Position numbers and translations under genes: made by a program. From contig CM043797.1 of the NCBI GenBank assembly GCA_023974075.1, positions 17,486,103 through 17,550,102 of the forward strand: a DNA stretch of 64,000 nucleotides. Reading direction: 5' to 3'. This document shows positions 7,344 through 37,565 of the stretch, piece by piece (within the stretch, counting starts at the first letter, position 1; the number at the start of each line of letters is the position of its first letter). This DNA comes from Chaenocephalus aceratus. Lineage: Eukaryota > Chordata > Actinopteri > Perciformes > Channichthyidae. The notes under the pieces were generated by a model. The model saw only the letters and a list, made by a program, of their open reading frames with translations. It did no database searches and was not told the origin of the DNA.

Positions 7344-7395
<52 letters not shown>

Positions 7396-16190: not shown

Positions 16191-17054
16191 TGTGCAAATC
16201 AGAATGTATATGACGACTTTCCAATTGAACTGCTAATGTCGCTTCTGAGACTTTCTGCCTATTTAAAGAACTTCCGAAGGCCCATTCCCAAACCGCCCCC
16301 TACACCCTACCCCTACACCCTATCCCTCCGTTTGCGCGTTCACGCGGAGGGTCCGCCATATTGAGGGCTGTTCCAAAGCAACGTGTGTGGAGGGGGAGTG
16401 GGCTATCAAGCCCTCAAACAGCGAGTCTGCAGCGATGCTGACTTGAGACCGGTCTCTCCCTGACCGGAGTCACGCTGTGTGTGTCCGTCAGGAAACACGC
16501 TGTTAAAAAGTAGTTCCAGCAAACATCCACTGATAAACTACGTTGTTAACAACCTCATGATGACCTCATATATTTTTAACTTAGGATCAAACCTGTGTTT
16601 AGTCTAGAAACAGGTAAACATGTGCATTTTATTATATAGTTGTGTATATTTACAGACCGTTGCAAAAACTAAGAAGCTTATAAACATCAGGTTTAAAACT
16701 AAAAGAGCTTTGAAACACAATGAAAGATGTTTGGAGTTTTATTTGAGTTATTCATTTAAACTTTTTTTCTAAGAGATGCTGATTTGAAACCGTTGTTACA
16801 TACAGTTACGGCATATCCTGTTTCTGCCGGAGAGAGGGGAGGCCGTCCCAAAGCTTGCTGCTGTGTCTACTCCCTCCATCTGACAGGAGGGAGACTCATT
16901 GAGCTGCGAGTGTGGCTACAGACGGAGTTCACTCCATCACGGAGGGGTAGAGTCGAGGGAGTGGTTTGGGATTGGGCCTAAAACAGGCTGAAACCGGTAT
17001 TGTAGCATGCCCGTCTCTCTGCCAATCACAGAGCTGCACAGTAATGCTGGCCGC
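16191..17054. promoter_or_regulatory. Presumed 5' region of the transposase gene
   Basis: This is the stretch upstream of the minus-strand transposase start and inside the right terminal repeat. It has no supported exon. GC-rich blocks around 16320-16500 and 16810-16980 could belong to a promoter, but no canonical TATA box was identified. Confidence 0.35.
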
Positions 17055-17970
17055 ATAGATGTGCGGGCCTGTGGTTGGGGGGGAGCAGAGGGGGGAGGGC
17101 TGGAGAGTGTGTGACGTTGACCCTGTTGTGTGACGTTAAACCTGCGACCTGTAACCTGTGACTTCTGAACCTGTATGCTACCAAAGTAGCTATTAAACCT
17201 AAGAACTTGAGGCCTGTTTTCGACTCCTATTGTGGAATATTACACTATTATGACTTCCGGGTTCACAGGAAATGACAGGCCTGTAGCGTTGCCATTAAGT
17301 ACACAACAAATACCTGCGCATTACGAACATGGATGTACAGTTCCTTATCCGTTATCTGTTAGCGTAGCTAGCTAGCACCAGATGCTAACACTAACAATAC
17401 ACGTAAGGTCTCGCTCGGGCCACACTTAAAATACGTTAAATGTACACAATTTCCTGAGGCATTTTTGTTAAACTGCTACTTTCGAGTTGTGCGCTAACAG
17501 CAATATAAATAAATGAGCGCAAAGACGTTATAATATTAAAATTTCAGAGCATACACTGATAGCAGCGTCCCTAGCAACCACCTTGGTAACAATGCAAACG
17601 TTGAATGGACACGATTTCCTGAAGTAATCTTGGTAATAACTAGCAAACTAAAGATCATGTACACCCACTACACACATAATCTTAAATAACAACTCATATT
17701 TCTCGCATGAAATGACATCAAAACGCATTTTAATGACCTAACTAACCTTAAAATAGGCATTTTACACCAAGAATAAAACGGAGGTCGGCCATGTTTCTTT
17801 TTCTGCAGAGAGAAATTTGAAGATCACGTGACATAGAAGCCAGCCATTGGAATGAATGGGGAGAAAAAAACGTAGGCATCTTACGATTTCAGAGGCGTTT
17901 TCGTAGAACTACTACGTCCTACGTTGTGGACCAACGTAGCTATTATACGTTTTTTTGTGAGACTGGGTTG
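17055..17970 (-). repeat. Right terminal inverted repeat of the KDZ transposon
   Basis: This is the reverse complement of 269-1184. Both copies share the YR-rich CCTCCCCCCTCTGCTCCCCC block near the inner end and the ACGTAG-rich tip. It is followed directly by the target duplication AAATTAC at 17971-17977. Confidence 0.92.
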
Positions 17971-18422: not shown

Positions 18423-18433
18423 TGTTGGCGCCA

Positions 18434-18466
<33 letters not shown>

Positions 18467-18775
18467 CGCGTCATCTAATCTGCGCACCTGGGAGCACGGG
18501 AGGTAATCAAGCTATATGTGGGCACAGGTGATCAGTGGGGATGAGAGGTTAGAGAGGAAGCCACACGTTTTTCAACCGTGTTGACAGTGTGCCTGATTGT
18601 GATATGTTAACCAAGATTTTAGATAGGCCTAAAAGAACCTTTTAACATTTTATAAAGAAATAAAGCATTACAAATTACGTCATGGTGGATCTCATCCTTC
18701 ACCACAACACGCGTTGGGAACTCTGGCTGCTAACCTCCATGAGTGGCTTTGTTTTGATGAGCGATCGCCGCTACA
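18423..18775 (+). repeat. 5' LTR of the BEL/Pao element
   Basis: A 353-bp LTR with TG...CA ends. It has a short TG run (18434-18464) and a polyadenylation signal AATAAA at 18659-18664. Gag starts about 240 bases downstream. Confidence 0.9.
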
Positions 18776-19017
18776 CTTGTTGAAAAACTGGCTCCAATGA
18801 ATGAATCGGAGGATCTTGGACGGAAGAAGGAGCTGCTGCGTTCCCACACAGCTCCAGATGATTGCTGACATGTGAACGCGGTGAAAGCCACGAGGAACCA
18901 CGGTAGGATCGTTAAGAATTGTTGCAAGCTGTGAAAGACCTTCTCATATCAGGGTAAAGGTAAATCCTGCGACAATTCTAAAATAAAACCTCACGCAGCT
19001 GCTGTGTTACTGTCAAA

Positions 19018-19441
19018 ATGAGCCAAGAGGGGAGTCGGCCTAAAGCGCCTGCCACTCAAAGTGATACAGGGAGTGGGCTCGGTAAAAGACAGCCTAAACT
19101 CACTGTTAAAGCATTGGAATTAAAAATAACTTCAATTCAACATGAAAGGAATTCAAGGATAAAGAAACTGCATAAATTAACAAAGGATGTTGAACAATTG
19201 ATACTTTCAAGCCAAAATGTGTCTGAGGTGGAATCCATGTGACATTTTTGTGAAAACAATGATCGAATTAAATGAGTTGCATGGGTCCCTGAAACCATTA
19301 ATACCAGAGGATGAAGTTATAAAACAAAATGAATGGTTTGAAACACGAATGCACAGCAATCGAGAAATGATGAATACAATGAAAAGGTGGTTGCAAACTA
19401 CAAAGGAGCAATTTACACATTCAATTGATGATGATGTGGTA
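19018..19441 (+). pseudogene. BEL/Pao gag, N-terminal part (frameshifted)
   Basis: It begins MSQEGSRPKAPATQ and continues with a predicted coiled coil (LELKITSIQHERNSRIKKL). At about 19238-19245 the frame ends at a TGA and the related sequence continues in another frame (FVKTMIELNELHGSLKPLI), so a small indel has broken it. It is cut at codon-level precision by the Polinton-like insertion: the frame before the duplicated AATGTC joins in frame with the sequence after 30946. Confidence 0.75.
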
Positions 19442-19569
19442 AATGTCAGTAGTAGTAATGATGTTCCTTTCCTCAAAAAAGTGACAGGTGGTGTGACAGG
19501 TCATACCTCTCCCTACTTATGCAAATGAGCTAAGTCCTTTGATGTCAGATTGGCATGAAAGACCCCCCG

Positions 19570-20200
19570 GAGTGATTCTTTTATTGCAGCAATTAAGATA
19601 GTTATAGGTATTTGACCCCTGACCCCTGAGTGGAGTAATTGCCCCAATTAGACTAGCCCCAGGCACCCCCTTTGTGTACAGGCCTTTTATTGCAGCAATT
19701 AAGATAGTTATAGGTATTTGACCCCTGACCCCATAGTGGAGTAATTGCCCCAATTAGACTAGCCCCAGGCACCCCCTTTGTGTATATGCTTTTTATTGTA
19801 GCAATTAAGATAGTTATAGGTATTTGACCCCTGACCCCAGAGTGGAGTAATTGCCCCAATTAGAATAGCCCCTGGCACCCCCTTTGTGTATAGGCTTTTT
19901 ATTGTAGCAATTAAGATAGTTATAGGTGTTTGACCCCTGACCCCAGAGTGGAGTAATAGCCCCAAATTAGAATAGCCCCTGGCACCCCCTTTGTGTATAG
20001 GCCTTTTATTGTAGCAGTTAAGATAGTTATAGGTATTTGACCCCTGACCCCCGAGTGGAGTAATTACCCCGCAATTATATTACCCCCAGGCACCCCCCTT
20101 TGTATACAGGCCATTTTATTGCGTCAATTAAGATAGCTAATGTATTTGAACCCTGACCCTGAGAGTGGAGTATTTGTCAGCAATTATATTAGCCCCATAC
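19570..20200 (-). repeat. Subterminal 106-bp tandem repeats, left arm
   Basis: About six imperfect copies of a 106-bp unit containing TTAAGATAGTTATAGGTATT, TTTGACCCCTGACCCC and GAGTGGAGTAATTGCCCCAA, decaying toward the interior. The same array is inverted near the other end. The position next to both termini suggests a role in replication initiation or packaging, or simple repeat expansion in the terminal repeat. Confidence 0.9.
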
Positions 20201-20656
20201 ACCCCCTCTGTTGTATAGGTATTTATGATGTATTGAATCTCTTTGATCCCTCCCCTCAGAGTCCTTTTGTTGTCTAATCTAATTAGCTTTTTGATGCCTG
20301 CCTTGATGTGCAATTTCACAATGATGAAAGCCTCTGTATAAATGAATGGGGTAACACCATATAGAGATATACTCAAAATAAATTTAAAAAAAGACAGACA
20401 ATTCAGCTTACCGAGTCGACCGTCTGAAGCGCCAGTCAAGAAGTGAATGCGGGCATAGGGGTGGGTTCAGAGTACAGCCTCTTTCTGGTCACGTGTGTTG
20501 GAGGAGGGGCTCTGTAAGGAAGGCAGAGTACAGCCTCTTTCTGGGCACGTGTGTTGGAGGAGGGGCTCTGTAAGGAAGGTTGAAGGAACGAGCAGGATTT
20601 CTCCCCCGGTCTGACTGTAAAAGACTCTGTCTTTTCTCCAAGGGGATAGTCTGAGT

Positions 20657-21043
20657 CAGGTTGTTTCTCTGGGCAAATTTACCCCAGAAACTGTTGAGAC
20701 ATAGTTTTGCCACTTCTCTTTTGGCTGGATTTGATTTGATTTGATCTGCATCCATCAAGATACCCTGTTTAGCGTGATAGTCTGCTACATACTTTTGTCT
20801 GCTCTCATCATCTGTGGCCTCTGAGGGGTAACCTGATGCTTCTTGTTTACCCTTCAAAAATGTGTGTATATACTCTACAAAAATGCTGTCACTTTTCTTC
20901 TCAAAATGCCACACCTCTGTGATCCGAGTCATCTTGTACCCCAGGTCCAGGGCTTTGGTGAATTCTGTGGTCACCCAAACGCCTGTTAATGCTCTTTCCT
21001 CCTTGCTATGCAGGCAGGCCCCTGGGGAGCTGAGTATGGCTCT
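20657..21043 (-). pseudogene. DNA polymerase B (protein-primed type) fragment, left arm
   Basis: About 130 residues of the palm region are in frame: HSKEERALTGVWVTTEF, then EVWHF, TFLKGKQEASGYP, and KLCLNSFWGKFAQRNN, which corresponds to motif B (K-x3-NS-x-xG). These blocks are typical of Polinton and related viral type-B polymerases. The upstream exonuclease, motif A and downstream DTDS motif are all missing. Downstream of LTQT the frame runs across a 786-bp deletion junction (near 20646) into unrelated sequence ending at 20489. It is inactive. Relative to its neighbours it points outward, toward the left end. Confidence 0.8.
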
Positions 21044-21162
21044 CGGGGGATGGTGGGTTAAGAGACAGATGCTTAGTTTTTGGACTGCCTCAGGGGGTTA
21101 ACGACATCTACTAAAAACAAAGTACTTCATTATTTACATTTTTTCAGCTTTTATACACAAAA

Positions 21163-21369
21163 GTGCAGGAAAATTCAGAGGATGAAGAAGCAGAAAACAG
21201 CCATTATTCTTCACTCTTCTGTAAAACGGACAGTTTCAAGAAAGATGACACCGTGTTTATGCATGACATGCAAAATATATTGAAGCCCTATTTTAAAAAA
21301 AACAAGTTACAAGTATATTGTGTGAAAATATCTCAGAAAGTTGTAATATTGTTTATTAGTGATACCTGA
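21163..21369 (+). CDS. Small acidic protein, 68 residues, left arm
   Basis: It begins MQENSEDEEAENSHYSS, with an acidic, serine-rich N terminus and a hydrophobic C terminus (VYCVKISQKVVILFIS). The upstream stretch TTTACATTTTTTCAG could be a splice acceptor, so this may be the last exon of a longer gene. An exact copy lies in the right arm. I do not recognise it, and coding status is uncertain. Confidence 0.4.
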   Translation: MQENSEDEEAENSHYSSLFCKTDSFKKDDTVFMHDMQNILKPYFKKNKLQVYCVKISQKVVILFISDT

Positions 21370-21652
21370 GGATATTCTCTTTTTTTATTTGTAGCGACTG
21401 TGAACTAATGTGTAATTACTTTTTTACTAACTATATAAGAAAAGTCTCTCTGAAGAGAGGAAATAATAAAACAATTTAAAACATAATCTTTGTCTTTTAT
21501 ATTTACTTTACACCACTATAAGGAAACCCAATATGAGGCTGTATGGTGTACTATTAGATTCTGTTGTAGGCAACAAAGAGAGGTTTTCTTAAAATGTGTT
21601 TCTGCTCCATTTCACTCCATGAAGCCTCCAGCTTGTACAGGGGCTCCGCCTC

Positions 21653-21706
21653 CACTCAACATAACATGTCCCGCCCTCCTCACCAGAACATTTCAAAGTA
21701 AGGGGA
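21653..21706 (+). promoter_or_regulatory. Recurrent intergenic module upstream of the 266-residue gene
   Basis: It reads CCACTCAACATAACATGTCC, then CGCCCTCCTCACCAGAAC, then CATTTCAAAGTAAGG. The same three blocks recur before the 81-, 167- and 110-residue genes and in the polymerase flank. The last block is TATA-like in the best copies. It is likely a shared promoter. Confidence 0.6.
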
Positions 21707-21790
21707 TGGAAATAGACGAAAATAAATACGCTCAAACTAGATAACAGGCCAGTCATTTCCAATCACCAAGGCACTTTTCAAAAAAGAAAA

Positions 21791-22591
21791 ATGGCAAAGA
21801 GAAGCTTAGATATGGGTTTAATCAGCGAGACGCCTGTGACAACGTACAGCCATCAGTCCGGAGCGCCAATCAAGAAACGAATGCAATATATGTGCCGGGT
21901 TCAGACGCCTCCAGCCGAAGAACTTTATGAAGAATGGAATCTAAAAAATGGTGATGTTTGGGGTTATGTATTCAACTATATGGCGAATGAACTGCATTTC
22001 TACAATCTGAAGAATGGAGAAACGTACGGACCCCGCAGTGTTAAAGCGACACTGACCTCAACAGATTGGGCTGTGTTAACTCTGGTGTCTTCCAGAGATC
22101 TCCACGCAACCACGGTACCGAAAGAAGTAGTGCATCAAGAAACCATAGTGGAACCAGCGGTGTACAAGATATTTGCAAAGAAAAGCAAAGAAACACAGAC
22201 AGCATGCGAGATCAAAGAAGAGATTTCATCGCCGCCCCTCAATGTGGAGGAAGAAAGAGTTATTTCCCCGCTGCCAGAAGTGAGAAGAGTCCTGACAAGC
22301 ACCGTCTGGGAAACTAAAAGCGGACCATCGGGGCGATGGTATTACCGTGCAAGCCATTTGGAGACGCTGGGGAAGGATCCCTCTGATGATTTTGTTTTGG
22401 AGGTTTTTAATTCTACCTGCGGAGTATTTCAGACAGCAGTGCGGGTACCACTGGCTGCTTGGCTGAAAATGATTGATGGAAAAGCTACAAAGCTTAAAGA
22501 ACTTTTTAAACAGAGTCAGACATCGATGGACATTATACTGGTGAAAAAGAATCTCACCTTTACAGAGGACTCTGCCCCCCACTCAACATAA
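21791..22591 (+). CDS. Unknown 266-residue protein of the Polinton-like element, left arm
   Basis: It starts MAKRSLDMGLISETPV, has a basic segment (APIKKRMQYMCR), and two similar globular parts separated by a charged linker (EIKEEISSPPLNVEEERVIS). The first part has WNLKNGDVWGYVFNYM and NGETYGPRSVKATLT. The second has SGPSGRWYYRASHLETLG and PLAAWLKMI. No signal peptide or membrane segment is seen. The right-arm copy (27003-27803, minus) encodes the identical sequence. The intergenic module at 21653-21706 lies about 85 bases upstream. I do not recognise the family; accessory or structural roles are equally possible. Confidence 0.75.
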   Translation: MAKRSLDMGLISETPVTTYSHQSGAPIKKRMQYMCRVQTPPAEELYEEWNLKNGDVWGYVFNYMANELHFYNLKNGETYGPRSVKATLTSTDWAVLTLVSSRDLHATTVPKEVVHQETIVEPAVYKIFAKKSKETQTACEIKEEISSPPLNVEEERVISPLPEVRRVLTSTVWETKSGPSGRWYYRASHLETLGKDPSDDFVLEVFNSTCGVFQTAVRVPLAAWLKMIDGKATKLKELFKQSQTSMDIILVKKNLTFTEDSAPHST

Positions 22592-22633
22592 CAAGTCACA
22601 CCCTCCTCATCAGAGCATTTTAAACTAAGGACC
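22576..22633 (+). promoter_or_regulatory. Recurrent intergenic module upstream of the 81-residue gene
   Basis: CCACTCAACATAACAAGTCA is followed by CCCTCCTCATCAGAG and CATTTTAAACTAAGGAC. It overlaps the last codons of the 266-residue gene, so genes are packed with promoter and coding sequence overlapping, as in compact viral genomes. Confidence 0.6.
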
Positions 22634-22649
22634 CCTCAAGAAAGACATT

Positions 22650-22895
22650 GTGTATTCTACCTATGTAAAAAGAATGTCGGGGTTGTCTCTGTATCAAGAA
22701 GATGTGTTTAAAAATGAATTTTGTGAAAAATACCAACTGTGTGAGAGACGTCATAAAGACAGTCATTTTAACCACAGTGTTTTGTTCTCTACAAATGTTT
22801 TAAGATTGTTACAAAATGTAAAAATAAAAATAAAAGGTATGGAGACTAAATTAATTCAGGTGACTCTGGCTTTATTAGGAAAACAAAACATATAA
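22650..22895 (+). CDS. Unknown 81-residue protein, left arm
   Basis: It starts MYSTYVKRMSGLSLYQEDVF and contains FCEKYQLCERRHKDSHFNH, with two Cys and three His that could bind zinc. The C terminus is basic and then hydrophobic. The start lies 15-20 bases past the TATA-like part of the upstream module. Identical in the right arm (26699-26944). The VKRM motif near the start recurs in the 88/98-residue protein, hinting at relatedness. Function unknown. Confidence 0.55.
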   Translation: MYSTYVKRMSGLSLYQEDVFKNEFCEKYQLCERRHKDSHFNHSVLFSTNVLRLLQNVKIKIKGMETKLIQVTLALLGKQNI

Positions 22896-23339
22896 TACAA
22901 AGGGGTTAGGGGTTAAATGTAACCATCGTGGACTTAATAGTCTAACAAAATACTTTTATCTGAATACATTTTTTCTTTTTAAGCGCACTTTCTGAAATTA
23001 TTTATTTATTATTTCAGTGGAACAATCCAGTTTTTGTTAACATTAACGCTTTCTTCTCTTTTTTCTTGTGTTACTAAGATACTTTTAGACATACTTTGGC
23101 GTATGCAACACTTGTTCAGATAAACAAGGTTTTTTCTTTTTCTGATAAACTTACATTTTTTAGTTATTTTATGTTACCAAGATACTTTGAGATGTACGCA
23201 ACTATACTTTTCTGACTTTTTTCTGTAGAATCGTGACAAAACTATTACTTGTTCTTAAATGATGACCTATTGCTGGAGATGAGATGAAAAAGCTACAACG
23301 CTTAAAGAACTTTTTTCTAAAAACTCTCAATTCTATAAT
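22896..23339. other. Non-coding gap between the 81- and 167-residue genes
   Basis: It is AT-rich. It contains two partly similar halves with ACTAAGATACTTTTAGACAT and ACCAAGATACTTTGAGATGT. No supported gene. It ends in the module of the next gene. Confidence 0.5.
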
Positions 23340-23422
23340 TGACTACCCCCATTCAACGCAATAAGCCCTACCCTCCACTCAGCAAATCATCTAAAACGAA
23401 GGACGACCGTTGTAAACTAGCC
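23340..23422 (+). promoter_or_regulatory. Recurrent intergenic module plus leader upstream of the 167-residue gene
   Basis: CATTCAACGCAATAAGCCC is followed by CCCTCCACTCAGCAAATC, CATCTAAAACGAAGGACG and a leader ACCGTTGTAAACTAGCC directly before the ATG. The 110-residue gene has the same leader immediately before its ATG. This fixes the start at 23423 rather than at the upstream in-frame ATG (23339), which lies before the module. Confidence 0.7.
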
Positions 23423-23926
23423 ATGGAGCAGAGAAAAGCCAAGACTCCCCCCGCGAGTTGCAGCCAGGAACAGAGTCCACCAGCAACACCACCATGGGGG
23501 AAACCCGAATCTTGCAATACTACAGCTGCTGATTTTGCTCCTTGGGCCAAAACGTCTCTGTTTATGGACACAGTGAAAGCGGTGTTGGTTGATATTGTGG
23601 AGAGGGTGATACATCGGTACAGAGAAGAAATATGCAATGGGTGCCGAGTCAGTCACCCCGGCCAGAGGCAACACGATTTTCTGAATGACATGTCCGATTT
23701 TTACTTCAGAAACAATTACAACGCGTTAATGAAAAGACTCTGGCTCACCGACTTCATTACTGAGATCGACCAGACTCTTAATGATAAAGACATTTTCACG
23801 GATGATTGGAGGATCCAAGGCGCTTCGGAGGCTTTTCTTCACAATCTCAAAAATTGCAGACGCCTCAAGGAGAGACTTGAAAAGATCCATGCCGAGTTGG
23901 ATGGAGAAGAAGAAGAAGAAGACTAA
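23423..23926 (+). CDS. Unknown 167-residue protein with a Cys/His cluster, left arm
   Basis: It starts MEQRKAKTPPASC. An upstream in-frame ATG at 23339 would give 195 residues, but it precedes the promoter-like module. After a Pro/Ser-rich N terminus comes a helical domain with CNGCRVSHPGQRQH, a C-x2-C-x3-H-x5-H arrangement that could hold zinc, then FLNDMSDFYFRNNYNAL and a very acidic Glu-rich tail. The right arm (25671-26171, minus) encodes the same protein minus one Glu. A CxxC...HPxQ motif of this kind is, to my memory, seen in proteins of several small DNA viruses of fish, but I cannot assign a family with certainty. Confidence 0.75.
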   Translation: MEQRKAKTPPASCSQEQSPPATPPWGKPESCNTTAADFAPWAKTSLFMDTVKAVLVDIVERVIHRYREEICNGCRVSHPGQRQHDFLNDMSDFYFRNNYNALMKRLWLTDFITEIDQTLNDKDIFTDDWRIQGASEAFLHNLKNCRRLKERLEKIHAELDGEEEEED

Positions 23927-24061
23927 CAACCAGCAGTTGGATGGAGAAGCCAGGGACTTGTTCGATACAGTGACTTTTTTCTTTAAGTAAAATAAAAATG
24001 GGAAACTACTTTGCAAAACGCTCTGTATATATTGATCATAATGTAGTCCCGTTTAATAAGT

Positions 24062-24328
24062 GTGATGATGGGGGCGATTGAAAACAGAACGAGTAGTGAC
24101 CCCTGTGTAAAAAGAATGGCTGAAGTTTGTAAACTAGAAGACATTTTGGATATCATTCGTTCTGGCAGTACTATTCCGGGTCATTGGGAAATGATTGTAA
24201 ACGAAACATTTAAAGTGGTCCTGGAATCTTCATTTTCCGAAACATTCTGTAACATTATCTCAGAAATGAAACAAACATCAAAAGTGTATCATGTGTATCA
24301 TTCGCAGCAGTCGGTTGGCGGGAGATGA
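24062..24328 (+). CDS. 88-residue protein, left arm, truncated at the palindrome centre
   Basis: It starts MMMGAIENRTSSDPCVKRM and continues KLEDILDIIRSG and HWEMIVNETFKVVLESS, a helical protein without membrane segments. The reading crosses the arm/centre boundary at 24295, so the last 11 residues differ from the right-arm version. One of the two must carry a foreign C terminus. Function unknown. Confidence 0.55.
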   Translation: MMMGAIENRTSSDPCVKRMAEVCKLEDILDIIRSGSTIPGHWEMIVNETFKVVLESSFSETFCNIISEMKQTSKVYHVYHSQQSVGGR

Positions 24329-24376
24329 TCTATAAGATTATTATGATCCGGTAATGGCTCTACAACACCATCTAGT

Positions 24377-24709
24377 TTAAATTTGTTCACTTTGTTTCTT
24401 TTTCTTTTCACCTTCCTTCTTTTGTCTTTCTGCTAATTGTCGTTTGCGATCTAGGCGAGTGGTATGAGATATACTGTTTCTATAAAGGTTATCTATAATA
24501 CCATCTTTTAAAGAAAGATATTCTTCATATGTCATGTTATCATGGTCCTCTTTTGTCCTAAAGACTTTACATGGATATGATATAGACGAGAGCTCTTCTT
24601 CTGGGACATCCTCTCCCCTACTTTGTAACATCCAGTCATTAAGCCCGTATCCATTATCCTGGTGATAATAAGGGCAGGCTACATCAGACTTGGTTTTTCT
24701 CAGATCCAT
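24377..24709 (-). CDS. Unknown 110-residue protein in the palindrome centre
   Basis: It starts MDLRKTKSDVACPYYHQD and ends in a strongly charged, lysine-rich tail (RQKKEGEKKKKQSEQI), with a middle part SYPCKVFRTKEDHDNMTYEEY. The ATG follows exactly the same leader (ACTAGCC) and TATA-like core as the 167-residue gene, which supports expression. It is the only gene in single copy. Function unknown. Confidence 0.7.
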   Translation of the reverse strand: MDLRKTKSDVACPYYHQDNGYGLNDWMLQSRGEDVPEEELSSISYPCKVFRTKEDHDNMTYEEYLSLKDGIIDNLYRNSISHTTRLDRKRQLAERQKKEGEKKKKQSEQI

Positions 24710-24790
24710 GGCTAGTTTTTAACGGTCGTCCTTAGTTTTATATGATTTGCTGAGTGGGTGGGACATATTGCGTTGAGTGGGAGGCTTCAT
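24710..24790 (-). promoter_or_regulatory. Recurrent module upstream of the 110-residue gene
   Basis: On the minus strand: CCACTCAACGCAATATGTCC, CACCCACTCAGCAAATC, then CATATAAAACTAAGGACG, in which TATAAAA is a consensus TATA box. This best copy identifies the last block of the module as a core promoter. Confidence 0.7.
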
Positions 24791-25235
24791 CTGTAGAAAG
24801 TACTCTGTTTCAGTAGATTTGGTTAAGAATCTGACTCTTAATGGCAGTTTGTCATTTTGGAGGGTATTTCAGTGAAACAAGGCTGTTTTGAACATTTGAC
24901 AGATTTAATGCTTAAATTCTCTGAGAAAGTTACCGAAGACACACTTTTCTTTTTAAAAAGCTGAAAAGTAGATAATGAAGTGTGCTTTGTGTTACAGACA
25001 CACGAAAACACTGAAAACACAACAAGAAGGACTGTAATACACATGTATCAGACACGTTCCCCTTGCGTATAAATGATGACAACAGTTTTTTAGATGTAAA
25101 AAACACTTTTTTTATTTTTTCACACACAAAATCAATAGTTATACTGATTGTAGCATCCCCAGGACAGTCTCCAGCTTAGAATTCCCCATATTACTGGAGA
25201 TATCATGATGGAGATTTTTCACTCAGTCAAAATAT

Positions 25236-25532
25236 TCACGTGTATGCTGTTTCAACACACAGATGCATTACATCTACAAACAGAGCATACAATGAGAGCA
25301 CATGATACACTTTTGATGTTTGTTTCATTTCTGAGATAATGTTACAGAATGTTTCGGAAAATGAAGATTCCAGGACCACTTTAAATGTTTCGTTTACAAT
25401 CATTTCCCAATGACCCGGAATAGTACTGCCAGAACGAATGATATCCAAAATGTCTTCTAGTTTACAAACTTCAGCCATTCTTTTTACACAGGGGTCACTA
25501 CTCGTTCTGTTTTCAATCGCCCCCATCATCAC
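25236..25532 (-). CDS. 98-residue version of the MMMG protein, right arm
   Basis: It is identical to the left-arm product for 77 residues, then continues LSLYALFVDVMHLCVETAYT from the centre. The hydrophobic end looks more natural than the left-arm tail, so this may be the original C terminus. That would place the right half of the centre next to this arm in the parental genome. Confidence 0.55.
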   Translation of the reverse strand: MMMGAIENRTSSDPCVKRMAEVCKLEDILDIIRSGSTIPGHWEMIVNETFKVVLESSFSETFCNIISEMKQTSKVYHVLSLYALFVDVMHLCVETAYT

Positions 25533-25670
25533 ACTTATTAAACGGGTAGACTACATTATGATCAATATATACAGAGCGTTTTGCAAAGTAGTTTCCCATT
25601 TTTATTTTACTTAAAGAAAAAAGTCACTGTATCGAACAAGTCCCTGGCTTCTCCATCCAACTGCTGGTTG

Positions 25671-26171
25671 TTAGTCTTCTTCTTCTTCTCCATCCAACTC
25701 GGCATGGATCTTTTCAAGTCTCTCCTTGAGGCGTCTGCAATTTTTGAGATTGTGAAGAAAAGCCTCCGAAGCGCCTTGGATCCTCCAATCATCCGTGAAA
25801 ATGTCTTTATCATTAAGAGTCTGGTCGATCTCAGTAATGAAGTCGGTGAGCCAGAGTCTTTTCATTAACGCGTTGTAATTGTTTCTGAAGTAAAAATCGG
25901 ACATGTCATTCAGAAAATCGTGTTGCCTCTGGCCGGGGTGACTGACTCGGCACCCATTGCATATTTCTTCTCTGTACCGATGTATCACCCTCTCCACAAT
26001 ATCAACCAACACCGCTTTCACTGTGTCCATAAACAGAGACGTTTTGGCCCAAGGAGCAAAATCAGCAGCTGTAGTATTGCAAGATTCGGGTTTCCCCCAT
26101 GGTGGTGTTGCTGGTGGACTCTGTTCCTGGCTGCAACTCGCGGGGGGAGTCTTGGCTTTTCTCTGCTCCAT
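25671..26171 (-). CDS. Unknown Cys/His-cluster protein, right-arm copy (166 residues)
   Basis: It is a mirror copy of 23423-23926, shorter by one Glu codon in the terminal acidic run. It keeps the same leader and TATA-like module (26172-26254). All residues of the C-x2-C-x3-H-x5-H cluster are retained, so both copies are open. Confidence 0.75.
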   Translation of the reverse strand: MEQRKAKTPPASCSQEQSPPATPPWGKPESCNTTAADFAPWAKTSLFMDTVKAVLVDIVERVIHRYREEICNGCRVSHPGQRQHDFLNDMSDFYFRNNYNALMKRLWLTDFITEIDQTLNDKDIFTDDWRIQGASEAFLHNLKNCRRLKERLEKIHAELDGEEEED

Positions 26172-26698
26172 GGCTAGTTTACAACGGTCGTCCTTCGTTT
26201 TAGATGATTTGCTGAGTGGAGGGTAGGGCTTATTGCGTTGAATGGGGGTAGTCAATTATAGAATTGAGAGTTTTTAGAAAAAAGTTCTTTAAGCGTTGTA
26301 GCTTTTTCATCTCATCTCCAGCAATAGGTCATCATTTAAGAACAAGTAATAGTTTTGTCACGATTCTACAGAAAAAAGTCAGAAAAGTATAGTTGCGTAC
26401 ATCTCAAAGTATCTTGGTAACATAAAATAACTAAAAAATGTAAGTTTATCAGAAAAAGAAAAAACCTTGTTTATCTGAACAAGTGTTGCATACGCCAAAG
26501 TATGTCTAAAAGTATCTTAGTAACACAAGAAAAAAGAGAAGAAAGCGTTAATGTTAACAAAAACTGGATTGTTCCACTGAAATAATAAATAAATAATTTC
26601 AGAAAGTGCGCTTAAAAAGAAAAAATGTATTCAGATAAAAGTATTTTGTTAGACTATTAAGTCCACGATGGTTACATTTAACCCCTAACCCCTTTGTA

Positions 26699-26944
26699 TT
26701 ATATGTTTTGTTTTCCTAATAAAGCCAGAGTCACCTGAATTAATTTAGTCTCCATACCTTTTATTTTTATTTTTACATTTTGTAACAATCTTAAAACATT
26801 TGTAGAGAACAAAACACTGTGGTTAAAATGACTGTCTTTATGACGTCTCTCACACAGTTGGTATTTTTCACAAAATTCATTTTTAAACACATCTTCTTGA
26901 TACAGAGACAACCCCGACATTCTTTTTACATAGGTAGAATACAC
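26699..26944 (-). CDS. Unknown 81-residue protein, right-arm copy
   Basis: It encodes the same residues as 22650-22895. The upstream module is at 26962-27018. No defects are seen. Confidence 0.55.
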   Translation of the reverse strand: MYSTYVKRMSGLSLYQEDVFKNEFCEKYQLCERRHKDSHFNHSVLFSTNVLRLLQNVKIKIKGMETKLIQVTLALLGKQNI

Positions 26945-27002
26945 AATGTCTTTCTTGAGGGGTCCTTAGTTTAAAATGCTCTGATGAGGAGGGTGTGACT
27001 TG

Positions 27003-27803
27003 TTATGTTGAGTGGGGGGCAGAGTCCTCTGTAAAGGTGAGATTCTTTTTCACCAGTATAATGTCCATCGATGTCTGACTCTGTTTAAAAAGTTCTTTAA
27101 GCTTTGTAGCTTTTCCATCAATCATTTTCAGCCAAGCAGCCAGTGGTACCCGCACTGCTGTCTGAAATACTCCGCAGGTAGAATTAAAAACCTCCAAAAC
27201 AAAATCATCAGAGGGATCCTTCCCCAGCGTCTCCAAATGGCTTGCACGGTAATACCATCGCCCCGATGGTCCGCTTTTAGTTTCCCAGACGGTGCTTGTC
27301 AGGACTCTTCTCACTTCTGGCAGCGGGGAAATAACTCTTTCTTCCTCCACATTGAGGGGCGGCGATGAAATCTCTTCTTTGATCTCGCATGCTGTCTGTG
27401 TTTCTTTGCTTTTCTTTGCAAATATCTTGTACACCGCTGGTTCCACTATGGTTTCTTGATGCACTACTTCTTTCGGTACCGTGGTTGCGTGGAGATCTCT
27501 GGAAGACACCAGAGTTAACACAGCCCAATCTGTTGAGGTCAGTGTCGCTTTAACACTGCGGGGTCCGTACGTTTCTCCATTCTTCAGATTGTAGAAATGC
27601 AGTTCATTCGCCATATAGTTGAATACATAACCCCAAACATCACCATTTTTTAGATTCCATTCTTCATAAAGTTCTTCGGCTGGAGGCGTCTGAACCCGGC
27701 ACATATATTGCATTCGTTTCTTGATTGGCGCTCCGGACTGATGGCTGTACGTTGTCACAGGCGTCTCGCTGATTAAACCCATATCTAAGCTTCTCTTTGC
27801 CAT
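27003..27803 (-). CDS. Unknown 266-residue protein, right-arm copy
   Basis: It encodes a sequence identical to the left-arm copy at 21791-22591, including its start and stop. Two intact identical copies in an otherwise gutted element suggest recent formation of the palindrome or continued gene conversion between the arms. Confidence 0.75.
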   Translation of the reverse strand: MAKRSLDMGLISETPVTTYSHQSGAPIKKRMQYMCRVQTPPAEELYEEWNLKNGDVWGYVFNYMANELHFYNLKNGETYGPRSVKATLTSTDWAVLTLVSSRDLHATTVPKEVVHQETIVEPAVYKIFAKKSKETQTACEIKEEISSPPLNVEEERVISPLPEVRRVLTSTVWETKSGPSGRWYYRASHLETLGKDPSDDFVLEVFNSTCGVFQTAVRVPLAAWLKMIDGKATKLKELFKQSQTSMDIILVKKNLTFTEDSAPHST

Positions 27804-28224
27804 TTTTCTTTTTTGAAAAGTGCCTTGGTGATTGGAAATGACTGGCCTGTTATCTAGTTTGAGCGTATTTATTTTCGTCTATTTCCATCCCCTTACTTTG
27901 AAATGTTCTGGTGAGGAGGGCGGGACATGTTATGTTGAGTGGAGGCGGAGCCCCTGTACAAGCTGGAGGCTTCATGGAGTGAAATGGAGCAGAAACACAT
28001 TTTAAGAAAACCTCTCTTTGTTGCCTACAACAGAATCTAATAGTACACCATACAGCCTCATATTGGGTTTCCTTATAGTGGTGTAAAGTAAATATAAAAG
28101 ACAAAGATTATGTTTTAAATTGTTTTATTATTTCCTCTCTTCAGAGAGACTTTTCTTATATAGTTAGTAAAAAAGTAATTACACATTAGTTCACAGTCGC
28201 TACAAATAAAAAAAGAGAATATCC

Positions 28225-28431
28225 TCAGGTATCACTAATAAACAATATTACAACTTTCTGAGATATTTTCACACAATATACTTGTAACTTGTTTTTTTTA
28301 AAATAGGGCTTCAATATATTTTGCATGTCATGCATAAACACGGTGTCATCTTTCTTGAAACTGTCCGTTTTACAGAAGAGTGAAGAATAATGGCTGTTTT
28401 CTGCTTCTTCATCCTCTGAATTTTCCTGCAC
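28225..28431 (-). CDS. Small acidic protein, 68 residues, right-arm copy
   Basis: Mirror of 21163-21369, identical in sequence. The same doubts apply: it may be an exon or a chance frame. Confidence 0.4.
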   Translation of the reverse strand: MQENSEDEEAENSHYSSLFCKTDSFKKDDTVFMHDMQNILKPYFKKNKLQVYCVKISQKVVILFISDT

Positions 28432-28553
28432 TTTTGTGTATAAAAGCTGAAAAAATGTAAATAATGAAGTACTTTGTTTTTAGTAGATGTCGTTAACCCC
28501 CTGAGGCAGTCCAAAAACTAAGCATCTGTCTCTTAACCCACCATCCCCCGAGA

Positions 28554-29164
28554 GCCATACTCAGCTCCCCAGGGGTCTGCCTGCATAGCAAGGAGGAAAG
28601 AGCATTAACAGGCGTTTGGGTGACCACAGAATTCACCAAAGCCCTGGACCTGGGGTACAAGATGACTCGGATCACAGAGGTGTGGCATTTTGAGAAGAAA
28701 AGTGACAGCATTTTTGTAGAGTGTATATACACACATTTTTGAAGGGTAAACAAGAAGCATCAGGTTACCCCTCAGAGGCCACAGATGATGAGAGCAGACA
28801 AAAGTATGTAGCAGAATATCACGCTAAACAGGGTATCTTGATGGATGCAGATCAAATCAAATCAAATCCAGCCAAAAGAGAAGTGGCAAAACTATGTCTC
28901 AACAGTTTCTGGGGTAAATTTGCCCAGAGAAACAACCTGACTCAGACTAAGATTGTGACCAAAACAGAAGAATTTCTTCACCTCTTGTTTTCAGCTAAAC
29001 AATTTGTGTTTAATTTAACTGCGGCGGAAGACGCTGAAGCCCTGTCTCCCCTTACAAGCGGTAGTTTAAGACTGGAAATGAGATTCAGAGTACCGCTGCC
29101 CCAGACTACCACTTTAATCGTATATTCTTGTTTTGATTCGATTCTGGAGATTAAACTTTTTTAG
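28554..29164 (+). pseudogene. DNA polymerase B fragment, right arm
   Basis: It carries the same palm fragment as the left arm but has a 2-bp insertion in a TGTATATACACACA run near 28722, which breaks the frame before TFLKGKQEASG. Downstream it keeps about 70 more residues (KIVTKTEEFLHLLFSAKQF onward) that the left arm has lost. The final part (PLPQTTTLIVYSCFDS) is not typical polymerase, and the catalytic DTDS motif is absent. It is non-functional. Confidence 0.8.
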
Positions 29165-29740
29165 TTTTGGTCGATGTGAGTGCTCGTATATCCTGAAATC
29201 GTTTGAAATGTTTGTTTTACTTCGCATATTGACTGACTAATGTGTCATTTTATTTGTGTTTTACAGCTGTATTTGTCTGCCTTTCATGTCTGTGTTTTAT
29301 AGGTTGTAACTTTGTACATGCTGCCCTTGGGACATATTGCGTTGAGTGGGAGGCTTCATCTGTAGAAAGTACTCTGTTTCAGTAGATTTGGTTAAGAATC
29401 TGACTCTTAATGGCAGTTTTTTGATTTAAAGACTTTTTTACAGACATTCGGCAGATTTATGTGTAAAGATTTAGTTAAGAATCTGTCTCTTAACCTACCA
29501 CCCCCTATAGCCAAAACATAAAACTCTGCAGATTTGTGTGTAATTCACTCACAAAGGAACTGTAAGATACACTTTAATGGATGCATAACCTATAGTTAAT
29601 AAAAGTAATTATACATTAGTTCACAAACCTACAATTAAAGAGTATGCTGGAAAACTATAATGTCCTTGAAGGGTTCTCGCTTTTAAATGATCTGATGAGG
29701 AAAGGTGGGGCTTATTATGTTGAGGGGTAGGCGGATCCCC
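29165..29740. other. Polymerase-flanking segment found only in the right arm
   Basis: It holds a 91-bp block (29329-29419) identical to 24760-24850, a related diverged copy after it (TTAGTTAAGAATCTGTCTCTTAACC near 29470), and a further intergenic module on the minus strand (29684-29736, TCAACATAATAAGCCCCACC). Most of it corresponds to the 786 bp missing from the left arm. Confidence 0.7.
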
Positions 29741-30204
29741 TTGGAGAAAAGACAGAGTCTTTTACAGTCAGACCGGGGGAGAAATCCTGCTCGTTCCTTC
29801 AACCTTCCTTACAGAGCCCCTCCTCCAACACACGTGCCCAGAAAGAGGCTGTACTCTGCCTTCCTTACAGAGCCTCTCCTCCAACACACGTGACCAGAAA
29901 GAGGCTGTACTCTGAACCCACCCCTATGCCCGCATTCGCTTCTTGACTGGCGCTTCAGACGGTCGACTCGGTAAGCTGAATTGTCTGTCTTTTTTTAAAT
30001 TTATTTTGAGTATATCTCTATATGGTGTTACCCCATTCATTTATACAGAGGCTTTCATCATTGTGAAATTTCACATCAAGGCAGGCATCAAAAAGCTAAT
30101 TAGATTAGACAACAAAATGACTCTGAGGGGAGGGGTCAAAGAGACTATCTATTCAATACATCATAAATACCTATACAACAGAGGGGGTGTATGGGGCTAA
30201 TATA

Positions 30205-30815
30205 ATTGCTGACAAATACTCCACTCTCAGGGTCAGGGTTCAAATACATTAGCTATCTTAATTGACGCAATAAAATGGCCTGTATACAAAGGGGGGTGCC
30301 TGGGGGTAATATAATTGCGGGGTAATTACTCCACTCGGGGGTCAGGGGTCAAATACCTATAACTATCTTAACTGCTACAATAAAGGCCTATACACAAAGG
30401 GGGTGCCAGGGGCTATTCTAATTTGGGGCTATTACTCCACTCTGGGGTCAGGGGTCAAACACCTATAACTATCTTAATTGCTACAATAAAAAGCCTATAC
30501 ACAAAGGGGGTGCCAGGGGCTATTCTAATTGGGGCAATTACTCCACTCTGGGGTCAGGGGTCAAATACCTATAACTATCTTAATTGCTACAATAAAAAGC
30601 ATATACACAAAGGGGGTGCCTGGGGCTAGTCTAATTGGGGCAATTACTCCACTATGGGGTCAGGGGTCAAATACCTATAACTATCTTAATTGCTGCAATA
30701 AAAGGCCTGTACACAAAGGGGGTGCCTGGGGCTAGTCTAATTGGGGCAATTACTCCACTCAGGGGTCAGGGGTCAAATACCTATAACTATCTTAATTGCT
30801 GCAATAAAAGAATCA
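30205..30815 (+). repeat. Subterminal 106-bp tandem repeats, right arm
   Basis: Mirror of the left array, with the unit containing AATACCTATAACTATCTTAA and GGGGTCAGGGGTCAAA. Copies next to the end are the most similar to each other. Confidence 0.9.
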
Positions 30816-30946
30816 CTCCGGGGGGTCTTTCACGCCAATCTGACATCAAAGGACTTAGCTCATTTGCATAAGTAGGGAGAGGTATGACCTGTCACACCAC
30901 CTGTCACTTTTTTGAGGAAAGGAACATCATTACTACTACTAATGTC

Positions 30947-33704
30947 AATGCTGCAACCAAAACTGTGGTAATTGATGATATCTGTCCAAATGACAGCGTT
31001 TCTAATGTAACCGGAAGAACGTGCACATCAGCTGGTCGCTCCAGCCACAGGTCCAACATGTCATCCATCTCGTCTGCATGTATCAAGGCGGAGGCTGAAG
31101 CGGCTGCTCTCAGTGCTATGGCGGCTATCCTCAAAGAAAAACATGCACTGGAGTGTGAAGAGCATAGCCTCGCAGCAGCCAGAAAGTGTGAAGAGGAGCA
31201 GATCAGACAACGCAAGGAGTGGCTTGAATTGCAAAGTGGAATTGCTGCCTATACAGCAAAGGCCAATGTGCTCAGGTACAGAGGATCTGAGGTTCAAAGC
31301 TCAAGGGCTGATTCAAATGGAATGAATTCATATCTAGACAGAGCCAAAAGGAAACTCTCTCTTACGGCCCCTACACACGGCGGCGTGCGTTACCGCTTGG
31401 CGGTGGGCGTGTCTTGAGCTTGGGGAATCAACGCGAGCAGCCCGACCAACAACCAACCACATGAATGTCCCGCCCCGGACATACAAAGCAAAGCGTTCAT
31501 GCTACTTCCATGCTGGCTAAATATACTGTCTATGCTTGCTAGCTGTCCATTCAAACGAAATACACTGGATATAAACTCCCCAAACAAGCGAAAACCTACC
31601 AGTTTCCCCCACTGTCTTTGCCACCTCCCCCCATGCCTGGCTCCTCCGGTTTGTATCCCTGTATGTTCCCTACCGCCACGATCATTTTCTCCTCCTTTTG
31701 TTGACATATGGGAAATAACTGCGGTCTGGCTCTCCCAACATACACCCGGTTTGATTGGCTACTGCTTGTACTGTCAGATTTACATACGAGGGATTTGATT
31801 GGCTGACGCCTCCGTCGAGGCGGCAAAAGTAGAACATTGCTTTACTTTTGCAGCGAGCACCTCGAGAGAAGCTACGCTTTGCTCCCGCAATGCAGTTCGG
31901 CGAATCGTGACGTCACCCCATTCAAAGTGAATGGGCAGACGCGTTGAAGCGGCAACGCACGCCGCCGTGTGTAGGGGCCGTTAGACCCTCTGCTACAGAA
32001 TTCATCCCACAAGGTTCAGAAGGTCAGTTCAACCCCTCACCAAAAGGGGGCAGCAGAGCGGTAGTGTCAGTGGAGACTCTGCACAACGATGCAAACTTGC
32101 AGTACCATAATCCTACAGAAGAGGATAAGAACTTTGCTCTGTCAATGGGTGCGCGCCCCAAAGATTAAAACCAGCAGTTGCATCATCCACCAGTAGGTGG
32201 CAGTAACACTCTATTGCCAATGGAGGCATTCACAGCCACAACAATACCAGAAGGAAATGGATCTAAAGCCGATGAACTCAATCCCACATCATCTCAAGTA
32301 TGTCAGCAGACATTCTCTGCCACACAAGTCACTCATGATCTTGACACACATTTGGTGCAGGAAACCAACCAACATACGGGTTCAGTGCAAAGTAACGTGA
32401 ATCAAGGCAACATTATCAACATCATGCAAAGGCAAAAGGATATCACAGCTCTGTTGGTGCAGCAACAGTTAACATTGTCACTGCCACCAAGAGAAATACC
32501 AACCTTTGATGGAGATCCTTTGGAGTATAGTGCATTCATACGAGCATTTGAACATGGAGTGGAAGCAAAGACTGCTACCAATGTTGATTGCCTATACTTT
32601 TTGGAATAATACACCAAGGGACAACCCAAAGAACTGGTTAAAAGCTGTCAACACATGCCACCCGACAGGGGATACCAAAGAGCAAAGACACTTTTGAGAG
32701 AACGCTTTGGAAATCAACAAATAATAGCCACTGCATACATGGAGCAAGCGCTTGGATGGACACCAGTGAAAGCAGAGGATGCTAAAGCTTTGCAAGCTTT
32801 TTCTTTGTTTCTCCGTGTTTGCTGCAATGCCATGGAGGACATAAGCTACATGTCAGAGATGAATATGCCAACTAACATGCGGGCGATGATCTTAAAGTTG
32901 CCCTATAAAATGAGGGAAAGATGGAGAAACCTTGCTTACGAGCTACAGGAGAGGCAACATCGTCAAGCAAGTTTCAGCGATATTGTCAAGTTTGTTGAGC
33001 GACAAGTATCTATTGCCTCTGATCCACTGTTTGGAAACATTCAAGACACGTCCATCTCTTCACCAAAATACATAAGTGGAAACAACATATCCCAGCCTCG
33101 CAGCCGCCAGAAAGGAAGCAGTTTTGCTACTTCCGTTGAAGCTGTCAATCGTGGAACTGCACCTGAAAAGCAAAAGGAGAATAGCCTACCGTATAGGCCA
33201 AGAAGGATATCTTGTCTGCTGTGTGAAGAGGATCACAAGTTGGAGACATGCTACAAAATGGAGAGGATGATGCACACAGAGAAAATTAGTTTTCTGAAAG
33301 AAAAGGGTGCATGTTTTGGTTGTTTAGCTGTTGGACACATGAGTAAGGACTGCAGCAGCCGCCTGTACTGCCAAGTGTGTGATTTAAAACATCCCACTAT
33401 CCTCCACATCCATTCACAGAGAAAGGAAGTCTCATCAGAGGACATACAGCACGAAACATCAACAGAGGATCACAAAGTTTCTACCAAAACATGTGACCAT
33501 ATTGGGGCTGGAGGACAGGAGTGTGCCTTGCCCATTGTGCCCATTCAGATCAAGGCTACAAAAGGCAGCACAGTGATACACACTTATGCCTTCCTAGATC
33601 CTGGTAGCACGGCCACCTTTTGCTCAGAGCGACTGATGAGGGAGCTTAAGATGACAGGAAGAAAATCCAAATTCCTGTTGAGAACAATGAATCAGGAAAA
33701 GCTT
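30947..33704 (+). pseudogene. BEL/Pao gag and aspartic protease region
   Basis: After the Polinton-like insertion, gag resumes with a coiled coil rich in Ala/Glu (KAEAEAAALSAMAAILKEKH). It is interrupted by the MITE and continues with PTFDGDPLEYSAFIRAFEH and LRERFGNQQIIATAYMEQAL, typical of the BEL/Pao gag domain. A nonsense codon TAA stands near 32607. Two CCHC-like knuckles follow (CLLCEEDHKLETC, CFGCLAVGHMSKDC). Then comes the retroviral-type protease with the active-site motif FLDPGSTATFC. The hAT insertion cuts the frame at 33705-33712. Confidence 0.8.
31365..31980. mobile_element. PIF/Harbinger-like MITE
   Basis: 616 bp with terminal inverted repeats of about 27 bp (tip CGGCCCCTACACACGGCGGC) and a 3-bp target duplication TTA at 31362-31364 and 31981-31983, the usual Harbinger signature. 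There is no transposase. It sits in the gag of the BEL/Pao element, and removing it restores the gag frame across the junction. Confidence 0.85.
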
Positions 33705-33712
33705 GTGGGTAG

Positions 33713-33797
33713 TAGGGATGGGAATTTGAAAGCAAATGTATATTCGAATATTCGACCCCCCAAAAAACGGTTAACCGGTTAACCGAAATGTACATAT

Positions 33798-33838
<41 letters not shown>

Positions 33839-34834
33839 AAATTGGGTAAAAAACTTTTTCCCGAATTTTTTTTTTTGACATTTTTTTTTTTACCCAATTT
33901 TTTTTCAAGAATTTTTTAGAAATACATACATGTTCAAATAAGTGTAGAAACCAAGTCGAATTTGTCAAATGTATTGAACTGGTGATCACAGTTTGACAGC
34001 TATAGGCCTACAGCTTTCATGTGTGGAGGCCATTCACAATCAGGCCAGCTGTAGAGAAGACCCTCTCAGCTGGAACGGAGGTTGCGGGTATAGCAAAGTA
34101 TAGCATGTATATAAGTTTAATTTGGCATAGTTTGACCTCTACATCGCACTCACTAACCTGGTCGAAGTATTTCCACACATTACTCCTTTTTGACGCCATG
34201 TCTGTTGTGTAGGACTCTTCTTAGAGTGTAAATAATTAAGGGACTATGACTGGTAAAATGTTGAATACCGGCAAAACTAAATCTCTCCAGTCAAAATGTC
34301 TATGCACTTTGCCGCCACACACGGTTGCCAAGCAGCGCTTATTGTTGTTTAGGCTGGCCACTCATGTGTCGCGAGTGTTGACAGGGGGCGGGGGAGCACG
34401 CTCAACTGTTAGCGCCGGAACCTCGCAACGGCTGCGGAGCTCATTTGCGCCACATTTGTGCCTAAGATGAGGTTTGAGTCTGCGTGATCTGCGTGTAGGC
34501 AGGGGTAGCAGCCATATCATTGGCTAGAACTAGCTATATCTGATGGATTTAGACATAAACGCGAGTGAAGTATAACCGGACACGAGAGAGAGAGAGAGAT
34601 CAGCACCTGCAGCTCTGCCTCCACCTAACACATTTAGCTATGGCATAGTCGTATATAAATACATTGAATTATTCAATTTGATAATATGTAATCAACTTAG
34701 GCATCACTCCCAAAAAAAAATTAATAAAACAAAATTTTTTTTATAAAAATATTCATAACTCATATTCGAATACATGAATAATTATTCGAATACCTGAATA
34801 ATTTCGAATATTCGATTAATCGTTCCCATCCCTA
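33713..34834 (-). mobile_element. hAT element, internal deletion derivative
   Basis: The ends are TAGGGATGGGAA and TTCCCATCCCTA, with an exact 8-bp target duplication GTGGGTAG at 33705-33712 and 34835-34842. Simple AT sequence and long T runs flank a short transposase remnant. It disrupts the BEL protease region. Confidence 0.88.
34017..34199 (-). pseudogene. hAT transposase remnant: start fused to dimerisation end
   Basis: Sixty codons start MASKRSNVWKYFDQV, like the beginning of a BED-finger hAT transposase. They run straight into ATSVPAERVFSTAG, the hallmark of the C-terminal hAT dimerisation region. Everything between, including the catalytic core, is missing. This is a natural deletion derivative and is non-functional. 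Confidence 0.75.
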
Positions 34835-34842
34835 GTGGGTAG

Positions 34843-36979: not shown

Positions 36980-37135
36980 ATAACTGACATAGATCCCTAT
37001 GTTCGGATTACTTTTTCCTTTTTGGGACCCTTTTTGACTGACAGTATGGACTGAGACACTCTCGTGCTCTTTATTAATAATTGACTCCACTAGTGTTTTG
37101 GTGTAATTGTCACTTTATTATACAGTCACAATTAG

Positions 37136-37565
<430 letters not shown>

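What the first reader, a model, noticed from the sequence alone, without database searches (positions are those of the whole stretch)
19448..30940. Polinton-like element that is almost entirely a giant palindrome
Arms of 4.85 and 5.64 kb are near-identical inverted copies around a 1.0-kb unique centre, yet the whole unit has AG-first termini and an exact 6-bp target duplication (AATGTC) within a BEL gag frame. Polintons normally have terminal repeats of a few hundred bases and one copy of each gene. This looks like a snap-back or head-to-head defective genome, as known for protein-primed linear DNA viruses, that was integrated as a unit. A read-through assembly artefact is unlikely: the two flanks are different halves of one gag gene, and the arms differ by a 786-bp deletion and small indels.
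Basis: partly seen in the sequence, partly recalled or inferred. Interest (0 to 1): 0.88.

Follow-up and report, generated by a model that had tools for sequence, protein, structure and literature searches.

The report
Maverick family built as palindromes
This is one copy of a family of virus-like mobile elements built almost entirely as two mirror-image halves, which appear to insert into the host's chromosomes as complete palindromes; it suggests that a virus-like element can persist and spread in such a stripped-down mirror form.

Summary
Positions 19448-30940 hold an 11.49-kb element with AGT-repeat ends, a 6-bp target duplication inside a BEL element, inverted arms of 4.85 and 5.64 kb, and a 1.00-kb unique centre. 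Ends and duplication match vertebrate Mavericks (Polintons); of the core genes only a PolB remnant was recognised.

The one-off defective genome does not hold. In the window's own genome one arm gene has at least 40 matches, 98-100% alike. Eleven of 16 sites examined are palindromic; seven were picked as inverted pairs (window included), and six of those have exact 6-bp duplications. A second site shares this element's inner joint and its 786-bp one-arm deletion, which implies that the palindrome moved as a unit. The fullest copy has 6.6-6.7-kb arms around 0.7 kb; this copy is a truncated derivative. A probable second haplotype of this locus has the centre inverted, which suggests recombination between arms.

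Best reading: a non-autonomous Maverick family whose usual form is a giant palindrome, mobilised in trans (inferred). Whether the first palindrome came from snap-back replication or from core loss by a long-repeat parent is unresolved. No core-bearing relative was seen, but the profile search for one did not complete.

The parts
19442..19447 (.). target-site duplication AATGTC, left copy
   Evidence: repeated at 30941-30946
19448..20646 (+). left arm, outer part: (AGT)3 end and six-copy 106-bp tandem array
20647..24295 (+). left arm, inner part; lacks 786 bp that the right arm has
20665..21097 (-). remnant of a family-B DNA polymerase gene (PF03175), left-arm copy, pointing to the terminus
   Evidence: E 2.4e-11
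21791..22591 (+). 266-aa accessory gene, left-arm copy
   Evidence: no Pfam family
23423..23926 (+). accessory gene of 167 aa, left-arm copy (searched as 166 aa without its Met); relative in Champsocephalus esox
24296..25298 (.). unique centre; in the fullest family copy most of this sequence is part of both arms
24377..24709 (-). 110-aa ORF in the centre; open stretches with the same start are 187 and 275 aa long in copies C18 and C22
25236..25532 (-). 98-aa ORF running from the right arm into the centre
25299..28949 (-). right arm, inner part
25671..26171 (-). accessory gene of 166 aa, right-arm copy (one codon shorter)
27003..27803 (-). 266-aa accessory gene, right-arm copy, identical to the left copy
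28497..29164 (+). DNA polymerase remnant, right-arm copy (2-bp indel against the left copy; runs on past the point where the left copy ends)
28950..29735 (.). 786 bp present in the right arm only
29736..30940 (-). right arm, outer part: tandem array and (ACT)3 end
30941..30946 (.). target-site duplication AATGTC, right copy

Best explanation
The element is a truncated copy of a multi-copy, non-autonomous Maverick (Polinton) family whose usual form is a giant palindrome: two inverted arms of up to about 6.6 kb, each with an (AGT)n end, a PolB remnant and accessory genes, around a centre of about 0.7 kb. Shown by sequence: the palindromes, their target duplications, and two sites that share the same joint and the same one-arm deletion. 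Inferred from this: the palindrome integrates as a unit. Inferred from Maverick biology: a related Maverick's protein-primed polymerase copies it from both ends and its integrase inserts it. Shown by sequence, with an assembly caveat: the centre is inverted between the window and a probable second haplotype. Inferred: recombination between the arms did this. How the first palindrome formed (snap-back of a strand from one end, or loss of the core from a parent with very long terminal repeats) is open.
For:: 40 scored matches of the 266-aa gene in the own genome, 98-100% alike (a few are second haplotypes); 18 of the 40 lie in 9 inverted pairs; those pairs are palindromic and make 7 sites with the window, because two contigs look like second haplotypes. 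Exact 6-bp duplications at 6 of 7 sites, 5 of 6 bases alike at the seventh (C6); 4 of 9 unpaired hits fetched show inverted arms; the C859/C17 site shares the window's joint (arm 5642 | centre 1003) and its 786-bp deletion. C18 (fetched arm parts 95.2% alike) and C22 (with an internal duplication) have the arm-centre layout, so the form is not new; two subfamilies, 12-15 differences per 801 bp, both palindromic; contig C1146 has the window's left flank (99.3% over 2181 bp) with the centre reversed. AGT ends and 6-bp duplications are the published features of vertebrate Mavericks.
Against: The pairs were chosen because they were pairs. Of the 9 unpaired hits fetched, 4 show no second arm within the fetched stretch (C4 11.71 Mb, C23, C73, and C16 43.37 Mb, which has only a 94-bp arm piece and a 0.84-kb mirrored insert 11-12 kb from its arm) and C52 runs into N; 13 of 22 unpaired hits were not fetched. 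Unit transfer rests on one pair of sites. No helper was found. Homogenisation within a site is not general: arms of one site differ by 0-6 of about 801 bp, sites of the main group by 1-5, and C1146's two arms by 6 where the window's differ by 0. The second flank of C1146 lies beyond its contig.
Confidence: 0.78

Rival explanations
1. Account of the founder, compatible with the best explanation: an autonomous Maverick with terminal repeats of about 6.6 kb that hold its accessory genes lost its core by internal deletion; the palindromes are its non-autonomous derivatives.
For: The centres of window, C859, C6, C16 and C24 fit deletions within one arm-centre map. The fullest copy keeps a 0.7-kb centre with an open stretch of 174 aa. 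Accessory regions near the ends are normal for Mavericks.
Against: No core gene was recognised in the copies seen, of which only some ORFs were scanned. Reported repeats of intact vertebrate Mavericks reach 1,447 bp. The PolB remnant points to the terminus in both arms, against the usual inward direction. C333 has a different centre.
Confidence: 0.4
2. Account of the founder, compatible with the best explanation: during protein-primed replication a strand from one end folded back and copied itself, giving a palindrome with one duplicated end and a loop; the founder then amplified as a family.
For: AAV asymmetric snapback genomes have this form (passages of PMC8235507). The AGT end repeats are expected to serve jumping-back in protein-primed replication (passage of PMC8097293).
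Against: The founder joint has not been identified. The window's own joint, which carries a 9-bp tandem (chance 0.2%), is a later joint within the family map and does not bear on the founder.
Confidence: 0.4
3. One reading: a one-off defective genome that snapped back and integrated once here.
For: Single 6-bp duplication, full ends, matching arms.
Against: Ten further palindromic sites among 16 examined, one with the same joint and deletion.
Confidence: 0.03
4. Inverted duplication after integration, by repair primed on the terminal repeats.
For: It would keep flanks and target duplication; the inner arms are more alike than the outer ones (0 against 8 substitutions).
Against: The same joint and the same 786-bp deletion occur at a second site with its own target duplication; palindromes recur in two subfamilies.
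Confidence: 0.05
5. Assembly artefact (fold-back reads or collapsed arms).
For: Reads could not be checked; the inner 3.3 kb without substitutions could be a collapsed consensus; the inverted centre at C1146 could be a phasing error.
Against: Seven paired sites with different flanks, six with exact and one with near-exact target duplications; probable second haplotypes of two sites on separate contigs or places; arm-specific indels.
Confidence: 0.04

Closest known systems
Vertebrate Mavericks / Polintons (PMC8097293; section 7 and passages seen)
   Same: (AGT)n//(ACT)n ends, 6-bp target duplications, a family-B polymerase gene (here a remnant), accessory genes near the ends
   Different: Arms of 4.85-5.64 kb here and up to 6.7 kb elsewhere, against reported repeats of 46-1,447 bp; no integrase, ATPase or capsid gene recognised. 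That survey started from integrase and pPolB hits, so it would not list such elements.
AAV snapback subgenomes (PMC8235507; passages seen)
   Same: One genome end duplicated as an inverted copy, with a loop in the asymmetric form; replicates with functions supplied in trans
   Different: A parvovirus, seen as packaged DNA; here a chromosomal, multi-copy element
Chromosomal palindromes with arm-to-arm gene conversion (PMC3723533, PMC1803023; passages seen)
   Same: Long near-identical inverted arms, rare inversions of the middle
   Different: Those are host sequences; here the palindrome is a mobile element
Foldback-type non-autonomous DNA transposons (recalled, no call)
   Same: Long inverted repeats with little single-copy DNA, moved in trans
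   Different: Different ends and target duplication as recalled; here a Maverick-type element

Membership tests
Maverick/Polinton (vertebrate) | (AGT)n start and (ACT)n end | tested here: met
   window and the other paired sites (left end of C1146 not held); definition in PMC8097293
Maverick/Polinton (vertebrate) | 6-bp target-site duplication | tested here: met
   window AATGTC; exact at 6 of 7 paired sites, 5 of 6 bases at C6
[quoted passage not shown]
   remnant matches PF03175 above its cut-off; too short to assign to the Maverick branch; protein search of the right-arm piece could not be made
Maverick/Polinton (vertebrate) | integrase, ATPase, protease and capsid genes | tested here: not met
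   longest open stretch 291 aa; Pfam scan of 10 of 38 open stretches of 75 aa or more found only PF03175 above a cut-off. Hence filed as a non-autonomous derivative, not as an autonomous Maverick.
Maverick/Polinton (vertebrate) | terminal inverted repeats of 46-1,447 bp, as in the intact elements of the survey | tested here: not met
   arms 4.85/5.64 kb here; 6.62/6.71 kb at C17 23.25 Mb
Non-autonomous multi-copy transposon family | several copies of one structure, each with its own target duplication | tested here: met
   7 paired sites; 4 of 9 unpaired hits also have inverted arms, target duplications there not examined
Snap-back defective genome | one end of a parent genome duplicated, present once in the parent | tested here: inconclusive
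   parent not found; the search with PF03175 did not complete (last try)

The most novel reading that the evidence does not exclude
A virus-derived Maverick lineage adopted a giant palindrome as its stable form. With two identical functional ends and two copies of its accessory genes it has spread as a satellite of autonomous Mavericks, and its centre flips orientation by recombination between arms, in the manner of isomerising virus genomes. It may interfere with its helper through competition or double-stranded RNA.
Probability: 0.25. Interest if true: 0.8.

Novelty: new variant of a known kind. Interest (0 to 1): 0.62.

Why it matters
A survey of vertebrate Mavericks that starts from integrase and polymerase genes (PMC8097293) would miss elements of this form. 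A palindromic, core-less family with intact ends and target duplications would be a natural satellite of an integrating virus. It would allow direct tests of whether Mavericks support replication and integration in trans, and of how long palindromes survive and recombine in a chromosome.

Tried and rejected
Viral contig scans with three proteins and two DNA patterns gave no relatives, nor did the scan of prokaryote genome contigs. The accessory proteins have 3 and 4 relatives.

I first read the clustering of arm differences around the 786-bp deletion as gene conversion (7 of 8 substitutions within 400 bp of it, 4e-05 under even placement, chosen after seeing the data). Sibling copies do not show arms of one site to be more alike than arms of different sites in the main group, so I keep it as possible only.

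I first read the left inner joint (9-bp tandem) as a snap-back joint; the family comparison makes it a later joint within a longer arm. That reading is withdrawn.

Two successive insertions are rejected, as the outer target duplications match.

Print: five searches had Polinton or Maverick terms (59, 72, 14, 36 and 16 papers found, at most 20 listed each); no listed title reports a palindromic Maverick. I saw listings only, and the library holds open-licence papers only. Searches were on adenovirus, protein-primed and palindrome themes.
Full report
What is there. The element lies at 19448-30940 between copies of AATGTC. Its ends read AGTAGTAGTAATGATG and the reverse complement. The host BEL element (18423-37565) has LTRs with 4 substitutions in 300 aligned bases and a 5-bp duplication CCATT. 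A reading frame runs on across the empty site. The left arm ends at 24295 and the right arm begins at 25299.

Contents. Each arm has a six-copy 106-bp array near its end, a piece of a family-B DNA polymerase gene (PF03175, E 2.4e-11 and 6e-07), a 266-aa gene and a gene of 166-167 aa without a Pfam family. The 266-aa protein has 3 relatives and the other 4 among 5.8 billion proteins; one of the latter is named from Champsocephalus esox, an icefish (recalled). The longest open stretch is 291 aa; a Pfam scan of 10 of 38 stretches of 75 aa or more gave no integrase, ATPase or capsid family. A 51-bp motif lies near accessory genes.

Arm differences. All eight substitutions fall in the outer 1571 bp; the inner 3277 bp differ by two 3-base indels only. 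With even placement a substitution-free run this long occurs in about 0.1% of trials.

The genome. The window is G000:C13:17486103-17550102 in a 1.06-Gb assembly of 3032 contigs. A search with the 266-aa gene scored 40 of 1277 candidates; all 40 are 98-100% alike. Eighteen of the 40 form nine inverted pairs. I fetched the eight pairs outside the window and compared them with the window's arm and centre.

Paired sites. Two of the nine look like second haplotypes: C1146 carries the window's left flank at 99.3% over 2181 bp (its other flank is beyond the contig), and C859 and C17:7.00 Mb share flanks at 99.6% and 99.9%; segmental duplication is not excluded. That leaves seven distinct sites with the window, all palindromic; they were chosen as pairs. 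Exact 6-bp duplications are at the window, C859/C17 (AATGGG), C16 (CACCAG), C17 23.25 Mb (GATGGG), C333 (ACCATG) and C24 (TAGTGT); C6 has one mismatch.

Unpaired hits. Of 22 I fetched nine. C4 27.27 Mb, C11, C22 and C18 show inverted arms; in C11 the second arm is short, and C22 and C18 are cut by the fetched end. C52 shows the centre in both directions and then N. C4 11.71 Mb, C23 and C73 show one arm in the fetched stretch. C16 43.37 Mb shows one arm, and 11-12 kb from it a 0.84-kb inverted copy of its insert with a 94-bp arm piece. Thirteen were not examined. In all, 11 of 16 sites examined are palindromic.

A common map. In C17 23.25 Mb the arms are 6.62 and 6.71 kb and the centre 0.70 kb; most of the window's centre is there part of both arms. 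C18 and C22 share the layout as far as fetched, and C6 and C16 hold the same centre next to a shortened side. The window is therefore a shortened member. C333 has a different 2.28-kb centre without recognised families.

Moved as a unit. C859/C17 has the window's inner joint (arm position 5642 against centre position 1003) and lacks the same 786 bp in one arm, at a different target. The simplest reading is that one palindrome with that deletion gave rise to both insertions. The C17 copy has lost a further 1.45 kb of one arm.

Arms recombine, probably. On C1146 the centre is reversed relative to the flank, while C859 and C17 agree in orientation. A crossover between inverted arms would do this; an assembly error cannot be excluded without reads. 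Long conversion tracts and rare inversions are known in chromosomal palindromes (passages of PMC3723533; see also PMC1803023). Against steady homogenisation: over the 266-aa gene the two arms of one place differ by 0-6 of about 801 bases, about as much as sites of the main group from each other (1-5); C24 and C333 differ from the rest by 12-15 and from each other by 4.

Age. At C18 the fetched arm parts are 95.2% alike, so the palindromic form is older than the recent copies.

What it is. Ends and duplication match vertebrate Mavericks (section 7 and passages of PMC8097293). It lacks the core, and its arms are far longer than the repeats of intact elements (46-1,447 bp), so I call it a non-autonomous, palindromic variant.

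How it works (inferred). Two Maverick ends allow protein-primed copying from both sides by a helper's polymerase and insertion by its integrase. The founder arose by snap-back, as in AAV asymmetric snapback genomes (passages of PMC8235507), or by core loss from a parent with long terminal repeats. The deciding search did not complete (last try).

Host. A fish is likely from the icefish relative; the Zisupton element nearby fits as recalled. This was not tested further.

Noticed in passing
269-17970: A 17.7-kb DNA transposon with 916-bp inverted repeats (99.3%) and a 7-bp duplication AAATTAC; a Kyakuja-Dileera-Zisupton transposase piece (PF18758) lies at 12846-13235; an empty paralogous site is at about 44862-44868.
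   Followed up: partly
42787-43905 and 51832-52995: Similar long open stretches in a direct duplication; the second was scanned and matches 7tm_1 receptors.
   Followed up: no
38553-40649: LINE-type open stretch with endonuclease and reverse transcriptase domains.
   Followed up: no
21653-21703, 22580-22630, and cores at 24777, 29346, 29724: A 51-bp motif or its core near accessory genes, a possible shared promoter.
   Followed up: partly
24759-24850 and 29328-29419: A 92-bp exact repeat shared by the centre and the 786-bp segment of the right arm.
   Followed up: no
L034 from about 6652 to 10000: The C52 copy runs into N soon after its centre turns round: an assembly gap or a withheld stretch.
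   Followed up: no
L023/L024, C333 159215-161497: The C333 copy has a different 2.28-kb centre with open stretches of 151 and 116 aa of no known family.
   Followed up: partly
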